A DNA stretch of 64,000 nt from NCBI GenBank assembly GCA_013214065.1, contig JABSPK010000002.1:372001-436000 (forward strand), read 5' to 3'. Every line of letters starts with the position of its first letter. The first letter of the stretch is position 1. This document shows, piece by piece, positions 1 through 2,825 of this stretch. Both the position numbers and the translations under genes were made by a program. The stretch comes from Flavobacteriaceae bacterium (lineage in GTDB: Bacteria > Bacteroidota > Bacteroidia > Flavobacteriales > Flavobacteriaceae). The notes under the pieces are model-generated. The model was not told the origin of the DNA. It made no database searches and saw nothing but the letters and a program-made list of their open reading frames with translations.

Positions 1-728
1 TACCCCAAGGTCGTGGCCCCAATGGGGTCATAAAAACGTTGTCGTAAATACGCCTCATACGGCATGCCCGTCAAGTCTTCGATCAACTTTGGGAAAACCA
101 AAAAAGTCAGTCCGGAATACCGATAGGTTTTTTCGCCCACCGGTGATGCATTGATCTTGCGATACATGTGCCGGTCAAAACGATTGCTAACAAAACGATC
201 GGCATACGCCTTCTTTCGGAAACGCTTGCTCGATCGAGTTCGGACAAACCTTCTTTTAGGGTGTTCGCCACGAAGCACATCGCTCAAAAATACGATATAT
301 GGCTGGAGCCCCGCTTGGTGGGCTAGAATTTCCCTTAAGGTCAGCGATCGTTTGTCCTTACGTTTTCGCCATGGGGTCCAGTAGGTCGAAAAGGGGACGT
401 CCAAATCTAATTTCCCTTCCTCGACCAGCTTCATCAAGGCCGGTAAAGGCCCAAGGATCTTGGTGACCGATGCCAAATCGTACAGATGGTCCGCTGCAAC
501 CGGTTCAATACTATCATAGGTGTGAAAACCGTAGGTCTTATGCAATACCACTTTGCCTTTATGGGCCACTAAGACCTGCGCTCCAGGAAATGCCTGCTTT
601 CGGATGCCGTCTTCGACAATGGCATCGATCTTTGCCGTGAATTCATCTTGGGGGTCAGCTTCCTTTTGGCAAAAAGCCGAAGGCATCAGTAAACGCATGG
701 CACACATTAAGAAGAGGTACTGCTTCAT
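1..728 (-). CDS. Serine hydrolase (beta-lactamase/PBP4-like fold), 3' end cut by window
   Basis: Reading the minus strand from the ATG at 726-728 gives an open frame that runs off the left edge, so only about 242 residues are visible. A hydrophobic N-terminus ending near LMPSAFCQ looks like a signal peptide, so the protein is probably exported. The SxxK nucleophile motif is seen as SVTK (LASVTKILG, about residue 87), and a YSG triad stands where YxN is usual. This is the class C beta-lactamase / D-Ala-D-Ala carboxypeptidase-like superfamily; substrate unknown. The start codon directly follows the stop of the WYL regulator (TAAATG), so the two are almost certainly co-transcribed. Confidence 0.85.
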   Translation of the reverse strand, partial: MKQYLFLMCAMRLLMPSAFCQKEADPQDEFTAKIDAIVEDGIRKQAFPGAQVLVAHKGKVVLHKTYGFHTYDSIEPVAADHLYDLASVTKILGPLPALMKLVEEGKLDLDVPFSTYWTPWRKRKDKRSLTLREILAHQAGLQPYIVFLSDVLRGEHPKRRFVRTRSSKRFRKKAYADRFVSNRFDRHMYRKINASPVGEKTYRYSGLTFLVFPKLIEDLTGMPYEAYLRQRFYDPIGATTLG

Positions 729-1682
729 TTATAGGATAAGTCTTTGTTGTTGTTTGTCTAGTAATTGAGCAAGCCGTTCTTTAAGCGATTCAGGTTCGAT
801 CACAGTGGCATAATCCCCGAACATCAAATACCAGCGCGCAAAATGATTGTCGATATCATCGATCATGAAGGTCATTTCCACGGCATCGGGCAATTGCCTT
901 TCCGCGATAAAACCATAGCCTTTCCGGCTTCCTTTCAGAAATTTGGCCACTTTCTTGTCGACCGATATTTTGACTTTATGCTTCTGTGTCGGTCTAGGCC
1001 GTCGCAACTCCTCTAAGCTACCGTGTTGCAATAAAAATCGCTCCGAAGTCCTATTAATACGGTGTATGCGGTCGGTTCTAAACTGCCGGTACGCCTGCCT
1101 AAGATGGCAAAAACCCATAACGTACCAAAAGTTGTTCTCATTGAATATACCGACTGGTTCAATTTTTCTATCGACCGGTGCATCGGCATCAATAGCCTCA
1201 TAACTAAGAAAGACCTGGGTTTTTTCGGCGATACTTTCGAATAAAAGTTCCAAGGCGTTCGGCACTTTCTCATTGAAAATATCTTGCGACGGAAAAATGC
1301 GCACCTGCGCTTCCAAGGCCTCCACCCAGTCTTTTTCGGATCCCCGCAAGACCGATTTCAATTTCAACATGGCCGATTCATGATGGGCGCCTAACGATCG
1401 ATCGGTAAAGTGCTGCATCAATTTTTCGGCGGCTACGAAACTCCCGGCCTCTTTTTTGGTAAACATCACCGGGGGCAACCGATATCCTTCCATAATGGAA
1501 TAGCCGACACCCGCCTCGCTGGCGATGGGCACTCCAGCGGCTTCCAATGTTCGAATATCGCGATAGATCGTTCGGAGACTGACTTCGAAACGGTCTGAAA
1601 GTTCTTGGGCCTTCACGATGCGTTTCGACTGCAGTTGGATCAAAATGGCGACGATTCGATCAAAACGTTTAACGGTATCCAT
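729..1682 (-). CDS. YafY-type transcriptional regulator, HTH + WYL domain
   Basis: Transcription factor of 317 residues. An N-terminal winged HTH (about residues 5-60, with LSDRFEVSLRTIYRDIRTLE) is followed by a WYL domain whose signature is WYV at about 186-188, and a C-terminal extension. WYL domains are known ligand or nucleic-acid sensing modules. A longer frame starts at 1754, but a good promoter (1708-1739) lies inside that extension, so the start is 1682 or the ATG at 1688. It is divergent from a DinB-like gene with paired TGACA-N6-TGTCA sites between them, which suggests it controls that gene (inference). The serine hydrolase follows with no gap. Confidence 0.9.
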   Translation of the reverse strand: MDTVKRFDRIVAILIQLQSKRIVKAQELSDRFEVSLRTIYRDIRTLEAAGVPIASEAGVGYSIMEGYRLPPVMFTKKEAGSFVAAEKLMQHFTDRSLGAHHESAMLKLKSVLRGSEKDWVEALEAQVRIFPSQDIFNEKVPNALELLFESIAEKTQVFLSYEAIDADAPVDRKIEPVGIFNENNFWYVMGFCHLRQAYRQFRTDRIHRINRTSERFLLQHGSLEELRRPRPTQKHKVKISVDKKVAKFLKGSRKGYGFIAERQLPDAVEMTFMIDDIDNHFARWYLMFGDYATVIEPESLKERLAQLLDKQQQRLIL

Positions 1683-1707
1683 TCCCATAAGTAATCGACC
1701 TATATTC

Positions 1708-1739
1708 CAAAGATAGGATTTCAATGTAAGCGCTGTCAA
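1708..1739 (-). promoter_or_regulatory. Promoter of the WYL regulator operon
   Basis: On the minus strand TTGACA (1734-1739) is followed by TATCTTTG (1708-1715), spaced 18 bases from the hexamer or 21 from TTG. This fits the Bacteroidota housekeeping consensus TTG-N17-23-TAnnTTTG. It lies about 20 bases upstream of the ATG at 1688 and rules out the longer ORF start. Confidence 0.75.
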
Positions 1740-1836
1740 CCACCCTTTCATCATTTTCAGTTATACTCCCATTCGTTCGTCCGTACCATCGCACTGACCT
1801 TTGCAGGCCATGCTATGCGCAAAGTACACTGAGAAG

Positions 1837-1901
1837 GTGACAGCCCTATGTCAGTACGATTTTAAACAGTTCTTTTTTTACTACTGACAAAGGGCTGTCA
1901 C
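1837..1901. promoter_or_regulatory. Paired operator-like inverted repeats TGACA-N6-TGTCA
   Basis: Two 20-base arms, 1837-1856 and 1882-1901, are reverse complements of each other with one mismatch. Each arm is itself a dyad TGACA-N6-TGTCA (1838-1853 and 1885-1900). Their centres are 47 bases apart. The right-hand site ends 11 bases upstream of the -7 element of the DinB gene. The layout suggests the neighbouring WYL regulator binds here and represses or loops the region (inference). Confidence 0.7.
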
Positions 1902-1911
1902 TCCCCCCATT

Positions 1912-1919
1912 TACCTTTG
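1912..1919 (+). promoter_or_regulatory. -7 element of the DinB-like gene
   Basis: TACCTTTG matches TAnnTTTG exactly, 32 bases upstream of the ATG at 1952. No clear TTG lies at the usual spacing; that space is taken by the right-hand TGACA-N6-TGTCA site, as expected for a regulated promoter. Confidence 0.6.
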
Positions 1920-1951: not shown

Positions 1952-2440
1952 ATGGAAAAAACAATCGAACAAGGTAATGTCGTGCTTTCACCAGCACATC
2001 TTTTGGAACACTGGCAAGGGCATCGAAGCTTGACACGGAGGATCATCGAAGCCTTTCCGGAAAAAGAGCTGTTCGAATTCAGCATCGGGGGCATGCGCCC
2101 TTTCGCTGAAATGGTCAAAGAAATGTTGGCCATTGCAGAACCCGGACTGCGGGAATTGGTTACCGGCGAAAAGCAGGAACTGGATGAACATGGCGATTTC
2201 GGCACCACCAAAGCCGCCCTTTTACAACGTTGGGATGCAGCAACCGAAGGCATCAATGACCTTTGGCCACAATTGACTTTAGAACACTATTCGCAGTCAA
2301 GGATCTTGTTCGGGCAGTATGAATTTCCGGTCCGTTGGCACCTGTTTTACTTCATCGATAATGAAATCCATCATCGAGGTCAGGCATATGTGTACTTAAG
2401 GGCCCTTGGCATTGAACCTCCATTTTTTTGGGAGCGCTAG
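1952..2440 (+). CDS. DinB-family putative metal-dependent protein
   Basis: 162 residues with the DinB/YfiT four-helix-bundle pattern: an early histidine (LLEHWQGHR, about residue 17-21) and a C-terminal IDNEIHHRGQ (about 138-147), which together form the usual metal-binding histidine triad. DinB-like proteins include thiol-S-transferases and many of unknown substrate, so the reaction is not known. It is preceded by a TACCTTTG -7 element and the TGACA-N6-TGTCA operator, and is followed one base later by a small conserved gene that is probably in the same transcript. Confidence 0.85.
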   Translation: MEKTIEQGNVVLSPAHLLEHWQGHRSLTRRIIEAFPEKELFEFSIGGMRPFAEMVKEMLAIAEPGLRELVTGEKQELDEHGDFGTTKAALLQRWDAATEGINDLWPQLTLEHYSQSRILFGQYEFPVRWHLFYFIDNEIHHRGQAYVYLRALGIEPPFFWER

Positions 2441-2441
2441 T

Positions 2442-2660
2442 ATGAAAACGGTTTTGGTTTTTAAAACATCGGTATCGAACCACGGCAAGGTGTCGCATAT
2501 TGGCCCGTTCCTGGATCGGTTGATCAATGGTAGCGGACGATGGAATTTTGACTTGGAGGATTGTGACAACATCCTCCGGGTCGAAACCGAACGCCCCAAT
2601 GCCTTGGCGATTTCCCGGTTATTACACGACAAGGGGTTTTTATGTGAAGAGCTTGATTAA
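2442..2660 (+). CDS. Small conserved protein with HMA/ferredoxin-like look
   Basis: A 72-residue protein starting MKTVLVFKTSV. The longer frame from 2406 would overlap the DinB gene, so the ATG at 2442, one base after its TAG stop, is preferred. The alternating beta-alpha pattern and WNFDLEDCDNILRVE core resemble small heavy-metal-associated-like proteins common in Bacteroidota, but no CxxC metal site is present. Function unknown; probably co-transcribed with the DinB-like gene. Confidence 0.7.
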   Translation: MKTVLVFKTSVSNHGKVSHIGPFLDRLINGSGRWNFDLEDCDNILRVETERPNALAISRLLHDKGFLCEELD

Positions 2661-2681: not shown

Positions 2682-2825
2682 ATGAGAAACTGGATTTGGC
2701 AAAAAGCGACCCCCGATGTTGATTGGGAGCGGAAATTCGCCCGTCGAAAAACCCAATTTTCTTTTTCCGCCACCAGAGCGGTACCCCAACCCATGGCAAA
2801 GAAAAAGGAAGCCCCGGATCAATGA
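2682..2825 (+). CDS. Possible 47-residue ORF
   Basis: An ATG frame starting MRNWIWQKATPDVDWERKF, rich in basic and aromatic residues, lies between the small HMA-like gene and the convergent bestrophin gene. It could be a real small protein or chance. There is no promoter or homology I can recognise; position and codon use are the only support. Confidence 0.25.
   Translation: MRNWIWQKATPDVDWERKFARRKTQFSFSATRAVPQPMAKKKEAPDQ

What the first reader, a model, noticed from the sequence alone, without database searches (positions are those of the whole stretch)
1837..1901. Two inverted TGACA-N6-TGTCA sites in the WYL-regulator/DinB intergenic region
Two 20-base arms are reverse complements of each other with one mismatch, and each arm contains its own dyad TGACA-N6-TGTCA. 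The right-hand copy lies just upstream of the DinB -7 element, and the WYL regulator gene is adjacent and divergent with its own clean promoter. This is a good candidate for a regulator-operator pair controlling a DinB-like protein. A serine hydrolase is co-transcribed with the regulator, giving a three-part unit (regulator, hydrolase, DinB/HMA-like pair) whose physiological role I cannot name.
Basis: partly seen in the sequence, partly recalled or inferred. Interest (0 to 1): 0.55.

Follow-up and report, generated by a model that had tools for sequence, protein, structure and literature searches.

The report
Conserved WYL switch for DinB gene
Next to a gene of the stress-linked DinB family lie two copies of a short mirror-image DNA tag that sits at a fixed distance from a promoter in many related bacteria and travels with a neighbouring regulator gene, pointing to a damage- or toxin-responsive gene switch of a kind described before in other bacterial groups.

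Summary
Two TGACA-N6-TGTCA boxes (1838-1853, 1885-1900) are the only ones in the window (0.04 expected) and two of three in the genome. An exact box lies upstream of dinB in 80 of 80 related loci, and with at most one mismatch in all 22 dinB-bearing genomes of a 198-genome phylum sample; all 22 carry a WYL regulator. In the window's class, 15 of 18 genomes with a close WYL homologue have the promoter-form box, against 0 of 31 others. Spacing is rigid: box, 11 nt, -7 element (78 of 81). The boxes are not one operator pair: the left one, read on the other strand, has the same spacing to its own -7 element in 28 two-box loci, so they head divergent promoters, right for dinB, left for the WYL gene. 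The downstream half-site has the spacing of the mycobacterial PafBC promoter, and the PafB residues that bind single-stranded DNA are nearly invariant. Best reading: a SiwR/PafBC-like activator inducing DinB-type protective proteins. Activation rather than repression, and the signal, are inferred, not shown.

The parts
1885..1900 (+). proximal box TGACAAAGGGCTGTCA, predicted WYL-regulator site of the dinB promoter (about -39 to -24)
   Evidence: exact in 80 of 80 other dinB loci
1912..1919 (+). -7 element TACCTTTG of the dinB promoter, 11 nt after the box; predicted start near 1924
   Evidence: sequence; spacing 11 nt in 78 of 81, 10 nt in 3 of 81; numbering from PMC9723704
1838..1853 (-). distal box (minus strand TGACATAGGGCTGTCA), predicted WYL-regulator site of the divergent WYL-gene promoter
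   Evidence: a second box is present in 27 of 80 loci, all with a divergent WYL gene
1819..1826 (-). -7-like element TACTTTGC 11 nt after the distal box; fits the TAnnTTGY variant; predicted start near 1814
   Evidence: 28 of 28 keep A at the second position of the element; TAnnTTGY class described in PMC9723704
729..1754 (-). WYL transcriptional regulator, long form 341 aa; the short form begins at 1682 or 1688
   Evidence: Pfam HTH_11, WYL, WCX; in-frame extension in 28 of 28 two-box loci
1708..1715 (-). internal basal -7 element TATCTTTG of the WYL gene, inside the extension codons TCC TAT CTT TGG; TTG at 1737-1739, spacer 21
   Evidence: 33 nt before the MD start in 28 of 28; codons S13, Y14, L15 identical in all 28
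1952..2440 (+). dinB, DinB-family protein (not the polymerase), target gene
   Evidence: Pfam PF05163 E 9.2e-18; closest solved chain 6iz2 E 1.9e-30
2442..2660 (+). HMA-like 72-aa protein, probable co-target
   Evidence: no Pfam match; homologue in 35 of 80 loci; homologue with its own box in G084 (L095)
3..728 (-). serine hydrolase (beta-lactamase family), abuts the WYL gene, only locally conserved
   Evidence: Pfam PF00144; 2 of 80 loci

Best explanation
TGACA-N6-TGTCA is the binding site of the adjacent WYL regulator. The regulator is most likely an activator of the SiwR/PafBC/DriD type: a dimer sits on the box at about -39 to -24, in place of a conventional upstream promoter element, and recruits or re-aims RNA polymerase at a -7 element exactly 11 nt downstream. 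The right box drives dinB and the HMA-like gene; the left box drives a second, divergent promoter of the WYL gene itself (positive autoregulation) on top of a basal internal promoter. The likely signal is DNA damage by reactive (electrophilic) compounds, sensed as single-stranded DNA in the WYL domain; the products would detoxify the agent. Shown here: conservation, rigid promoter geometry, co-occurrence and adjacency with WYL genes, conserved ligand residues. Inferred: physical binding (about 0.95), activation rather than repression (about 0.7), DNA-damage signal (about 0.6), detoxification role (about 0.6).
For: Box exact in 80 of 80 dinB loci. Box to -7 spacing 11 nt in 78 of 81, 10 nt in 3 of 81, repeated by the distal boxes of the 28 two-box loci. 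In 198 phylum genomes the promoter-form box is in 50 of 69 genomes with a WYL homologue (E<=1e-30) and 6 of 129 without; by genus 28 of 40 against 3 of 63; in the own class 15 of 18 (E<=1e-60) against 0 of 31. dinB homologues occur in 22 of 198, all WYL-positive, all with a box (19 exact, 3 with one mismatch). Of 20 further WYL genes fetched, 16 have a box with at most one mismatch just 3' of the gene on the same strand, 15 of them with a -7 element at 10-11 nt; 0.086 hits per 1.7 kb expected. Geometry equals the PafBC promoter tTGTCRgtg-8nt-TannnT (PMC5656591, passage). Residues R172, Y187, R195, R199 match PafB R181, Y196, R204, R208 (my mapping, from the alignment and the residue numbers in PMC11804915) and are kept in 107, 99, 105, 107 of 107; recognition-helix R37 and R41 in 104 of 104 ungapped. 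Other box targets: DinB, VOC/glyoxalase, GyrI-like, alpha/beta hydrolases, OmdA, SnoaL, UvrB, methyladenine glycosylase. SiwR of M. smegmatis activates divergent DinB-family genes from a -26 site (PMC10693628, passages).
Against: No binding or expression data. Absence of a TTG upstream element in the dinB promoters (0 of 81) is weak support: in 148 ordinary TAnnTTTG sites of the same loci TTG at spacers 17-23 is not enriched either (16 against 21 in a control range). VIA-align ties the model with BrxR and CapW (Z 12.0-13.9) as well as PafBC and DriD (Z 9.8-13.3), and the model is mediocre (pLDDT 71, pTM 0.46). CapW also binds single-stranded DNA (title of 9c5g) and is a repressor (recalled). 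Box without WYL at E<=1e-30 in 6 genomes; no box near 4 of 20 WYL genes nor in 4.8 kb around the WYL gene of G146. In 3 of 80 loci no WYL gene lies within the fetched stretch. The window's own distal -7 element departs from TAnnTTTG. Genomes are related, so the Fisher values overstate independence.
Confidence: 0.6

Rival explanations
1. Same regulator-box pair, but the WYL protein is a repressor of the BrxR/CapW kind: it covers the -39 to -24 region and blocks polymerase until a ligand, perhaps single-stranded DNA, releases it.
For: Box overlaps the promoter; BrxR and CapW share the fold; divergent autoregulated regulator-target pairs are typical of repressors (general knowledge).
Against: Spacing to the -7 element is rigid (78 of 81) and recurs for many different target genes across the phylum, as expected from contact with polymerase; geometry equals the PafBC promoter; the ligand residues are those of PafB; the functional parallel SiwR is an activator.
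Confidence: 0.25
2. The box is the site of another regulator (for example a LexA-type SOS repressor), and the WYL gene is a bystander.
For: In other classes the box precedes recA, ssb, recR, classical SOS genes; 6 box-positive genomes lack a WYL homologue at E<=1e-30.
Against: 20 lexA upstream regions carry no box; [quoted passage not shown] box and WYL genes are adjacent again and again.
Confidence: 0.05
3. The 65-bp inverted repeat is a chance repeat, a hairpin/terminator or a mobile-element remnant.
For: The arms are 95% complementary over 20 nt.
Against: 53 of 80 loci carry a single box and so no such inverted repeat; between loci the spacer and flanks vary while each dyad stays intact; no further exact copy in the loci.
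Confidence: 0.01

Closest known systems
SiwR-msmeg_1357-56 of Mycobacterium smegmatis (PMC10693628, passages read)
   Same: WYL regulator (HTH-WYL-WCX) next to and divergent from DinB-family genes; palindrome between -35 and -10; -26 region needed; activation by genotoxic stress
   Different: Other phylum; SiwR site is a 19-bp imperfect palindrome with a conserved GGA at -26, not TGACA-N6-TGTCA; here two back-to-back boxes, HMA-like co-target, apparent WYL autoregulation and a split start of the WYL gene; orthology to SiwR not tested
PafBC and its RecA-independent promoter (PMC5656591, PMC11804915, PMC6789036, passages read)
   Same: TTGTC-type half-site with the same 17-nt distance to the TA of the -10/-7 element; same ligand residues as PafB
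   Different: PafBC is a heterodimer with a non-palindromic site; here one WYL gene and a palindrome
DriD of Caulobacter crescentus (PMC12340889, passages read)
   Same: Homodimeric WYL activator, palindromic site with GAC...GTC half-sites at constant distance from -10
   Different: ATACGAC-N7-GTCGTAT (GAC-N7-GTC) against GAC-N8-GTC here; different targets (bapE, didA, recJ, dnaG)
DR0053 of Deinococcus radiodurans (PMC4338110, passages read)
   Same: DinB/YfiT-family gene induced by radiation and mitomycin C; mutant sensitive
   Different: Regulated through PprI, RecA and DrtR/S, not a WYL protein

Membership tests
SiwR-type WYL/DinB module | HTH-WYL-WCX regulator | tested here: met
   Pfam HTH_11, WYL, WCX above cut-offs
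SiwR-type WYL/DinB module | DinB-family gene next to and divergent from the regulator | tested here: met
   window, and 28 of 80 loci; in 49 of 80 the WYL gene is downstream and convergent, in 3 not in the stretch
SiwR-type WYL/DinB module | palindrome upstream of the -10/-7 element | tested here: met
   78 of 81 at 11 nt, 3 of 81 at 10 nt
SiwR-type WYL/DinB module | GGA triplet at -26 | tested here: not met
   TGTCA occupies -28 to -24 here (numbering)
SiwR-type WYL/DinB module | induction by genotoxic stress, activator role | not testable with these tools
   no expression data
PafBC-type -26 promoters | TTGTC half-site 17 nt before TA of the -10 element | tested here: met
   against the consensus in PMC5656591; first base T in 53, C in 28 of 81
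PafBC-type -26 promoters | heterodimeric PafB/PafC regulator | tested here: not met
   a single WYL gene at the locus
ssDNA-binding WYL regulators | PafB ligand residues R181, Y196, R204, R208 | tested here: met
   conserved as R172, Y187, R195, R199
ssDNA-binding WYL regulators | binding of single-stranded DNA | not testable with these tools
   needs purified protein
BrxR/CapW WYL repressors | fold | tested here: inconclusive
   Z tied with PafBC and DriD
LexA SOS box | box upstream of lexA | tested here: not met
   0 of 20 lexA upstream regions, all from other classes
DinB/YfiT metal-dependent enzymes | three-histidine metal site | tested here: inconclusive
   N137, E138, H140, H141 are invariant in 92 sequences; the solved chain 3gor has His where Asn 137 stands; which residues bind metal is recalled

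The most novel reading that the evidence does not exclude
Bacteroidota possess a phylum-wide, LexA-independent genotoxin response made of many small WYL-box-effector cassettes that all use one promoter code (TGACA-N6-TGTCA, 11 nt, TAnnTTTG), the same geometry as the PafBC promoter of mycobacteria. In some lineages the code has spread to recA, ssb, recR and uvrB. In the window's lineage the regulator activates itself from a back-to-back promoter and makes a longer isoform, whose added N-terminus is encoded across its own basal promoter.
Probability: 0.4. Interest if true: 0.75.

Novelty: new variant of a known kind. Interest (0 to 1): 0.6.

Why it matters
Regulators of the WYL kind are widespread and mostly uncharacterised in Bacteroidota (general knowledge). 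One readable promoter code ties many of them to their targets, so regulons can be read straight from genomes. If they work like PafBC and SiwR, sigma adaptation or a close relative of it operates far outside Actinobacteria, and Bacteroidota have a damage response separate from LexA. The prediction can be tested directly in Flavobacterium or Muricauda.

Tried and rejected
Rejected: LexA box (and PMC8565304); chance or hairpin. Weakened: 'no -33 element, hence activator', because ordinary promoters of the same loci show no -33 enrichment in my crude set. Fold comparison does not separate activators from repressors: Foldseek ranks PafBC and DriD first, VIA-align ties them with BrxR and CapW. A scan of viral contigs for the WYL protein found no relative. 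G146, WYL-positive without a box near the WYL gene, stays unexplained. Literature: no paper describing this box came up in the searches (open-access library only; one search was for the promoter consensus and for DR0053).

Full report
1. The observation. The two arms (1837-1856, 1882-1901) and the two TGACA-N6-TGTCA dyads (1838-1853, 1885-1900) are as described. Two hits in 64 kb against 0.04 expected. The genome has three exact sites; the third is inside a coding frame.

2. Conservation. 80 loci with the best dinB relatives (of 428 found; the rest were not kept) were chosen by protein similarity, not by the box. All 80 have an exact box upstream of dinB, and none has another exact box elsewhere. 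Arrangement: two boxes with divergent WYL gene 27, one box with WYL gene downstream and convergent 49, one box with divergent WYL gene 1, no WYL gene in the fetched stretch 3.

3. Geometry. TAnnTTTG starts 11 nt after the box in 72 of 81 promoters (80 loci plus the window); 6 more have an imperfect element at 11 nt (L007, L014, L034, L036, L038, L052); 3 have 10 nt (L023, L046, L076). The flank before the box is nearly invariant at two positions (C at -4 and T at -3 of the box, 80 of 81 each). With TAnnTTTG at -12 to -5 (PMC9723704, passage) the half-sites lie at -39 to -35 and -28 to -24. The mycobacterial PafBC promoter, tTGTCRgtg-8nt-TannnT (PMC5656591, passage), has the same 17 nt from the start of its TTGTC to TA.

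4. The second box. In the 28 two-box loci (27 plus the window) the distal box, read on the minus strand, also has a -7 element at 11 nt: A at its second position 28 of 28, final G 26 of 28, first T 24 of 28. Spacing between the box starts is 46-49 nt. So the inverted repeat is two promoters back to back. The window's distal element, TACTTTGC, fits the TAnnTTGY class.

5. WYL gene start. In 28 of 28 two-box loci an in-frame ATG lies 24 codons upstream of the short start (in L009, L010, L011 and L018 the frame has a still earlier ATG as well). The extension (..LKSYLW[EN]I..MGMD) is conserved, and TATCTTTG lies inside it, 33 nt before the short start. Of 161 amino-acid-invariant codons (M and W left out) 7 use one codon in all 28, all within codons 13-31, including the three that spell TATCTTT. 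I infer a basal promoter embedded in coding sequence and two protein forms. The loci are related; the upstream regions of 16 one-box relatives shown do not have this conserved extension by eye.

6. Co-occurrence. In 198 genomes of the phylum the pattern TGACA-N6-TGTCA-N11-TAnnTT is in 56. WYL homologues at E<=1e-30: 69. Both: 50; box only: 6 (G022, G035, G062, G104, G112, G123); WYL only: 19. By genus: both 28, WYL only 12, box only 3, neither 60. In the class (49 genomes) with E<=1e-60: 15 of 18 against 0 of 31; of the 3 exceptions G002 has an exact box with a 10-nt spacer at dinB and G049 a one-mismatch box at dinB; G146 has none near its WYL gene. Thresholds were chosen after looking, and genomes are related. 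dinB homologues (E<=1e-15): 22 of 198, all WYL-positive, all with a box: 19 exact, 3 with one mismatch (G049, G096, G175).

7. A wider family. In several genomes the WYL gene directly precedes the box (for example G192, G143, G187, G139, G108, G077, G092; coordinates). Of 20 WYL genes chosen from the list, 16 have a box (at most one mismatch) 3' of the gene on the same strand, 14 of them within 37-75 nt, 15 with a -7 element at 10-11 nt; none in L223, L234, L237, L239. One of the 16 (G175) is also among the 22 dinB genomes. The window's genome has a second such unit: a short WYL paralogue (C5:2107-2760) followed by CGACATAGGGTTGTCA-N11-GATCTTTG and a 125-aa gene; that search, with two mismatches allowed, found 4 places against 6 for the reversed control pattern, so only the position next to a WYL gene makes it credible.

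8. Targets. Pfam of box-downstream genes: in the own class DinB, SnoaL, UvrB, alpha/beta hydrolase, glyoxalase/3-dmu-9_3-mt, OmdA, GyrI-like/Cass2, L-PSP, AHSA1; elsewhere also methyladenine glycosylase, HlyD, ABC ATPase, DUF1801, DUF4345, ABM; outside the class RecA, SSB, RecR, Rad52-like. No Pfam match for L095 (HMA-like), L097, L107, L115, L149, L220. These are first open frames after a box, picked by script; a few will be wrong genes or chance boxes (for example L090, an AT-rich palindrome without a following frame).

9. The regulator. Closest solved sequences are PafBC. Ligand and recognition-helix residues are conserved in 106 open frames, one per locus, some loci overlapping one another. 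AlphaFold model pLDDT 71, pTM 0.46; Foldseek puts PafBC and DriD first, VIA-align ties them with BrxR and CapW.

10. The target. Window dinB belongs to DinB (PF05163), nearest solved chain 6iz2. In 92 relatives H24, R25, R29, R49, E57, W94, D95, N137, E138, H140, H141, R142, Q144 are invariant. A DinB-family protein of Deinococcus, DR0053, is induced by radiation and mitomycin C and its mutant is sensitive (PMC4338110, passages).

11. Verdict. The regulator-operator pair is well supported by sequence. Activation is favoured by fixed spacing, PafBC-like geometry, PafB-type residues and the SiwR parallel; the missing -33 element adds little. SiwR (PMC10693628) makes this a variant of a known kind; I found no description of this box or of the cassette family in the searches named under Tried and rejected.

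Noticed in passing
L132, L162, L166 (recA); L155, L158, L164 (ssb); L159, L160, L163 (recR); L169, L170: In genomes of other classes the promoter-form box precedes recA, ssb, recR and (read by eye from the protein start) ruvB and radA genes, though 20 lexA upstream regions examined there lack it; a WYL regulator may control core recombination genes in those lineages.
   Followed up: partly
G000:C5:2107-2828 (L220): Possible second WYL-box unit in the window's genome: short WYL paralogue, variant box, 125-aa gene, with a YdeI-like gene upstream; possible cross-talk with the window's regulator.
   Followed up: partly
window 1680-1754, minus: Conserved N-terminal extension of the WYL gene that overlaps its basal promoter in 28 of 28 two-box relatives; suggests two isoforms.
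   Followed up: partly
window 1952-2440: This DinB subfamily has invariant N137-E138-x-H140-H141-R142; the solved DinB-like chain 3gor has a histidine where Asn 137 stands, so the usual metal site may be altered.
   Followed up: partly
L107, L108, L110-L113, L115, L116: Conserved ~110-115-aa protein without Pfam match (L107 and L115 tested) downstream of a box, often TGACACTATGTTGTCAC, in genomes of another class.
   Followed up: no
window 2682-2825, +: Possible small gene after the HMA-like gene (begins MRNWIWQKATPDVDW, read by eye); conservation not checked.
   Followed up: no
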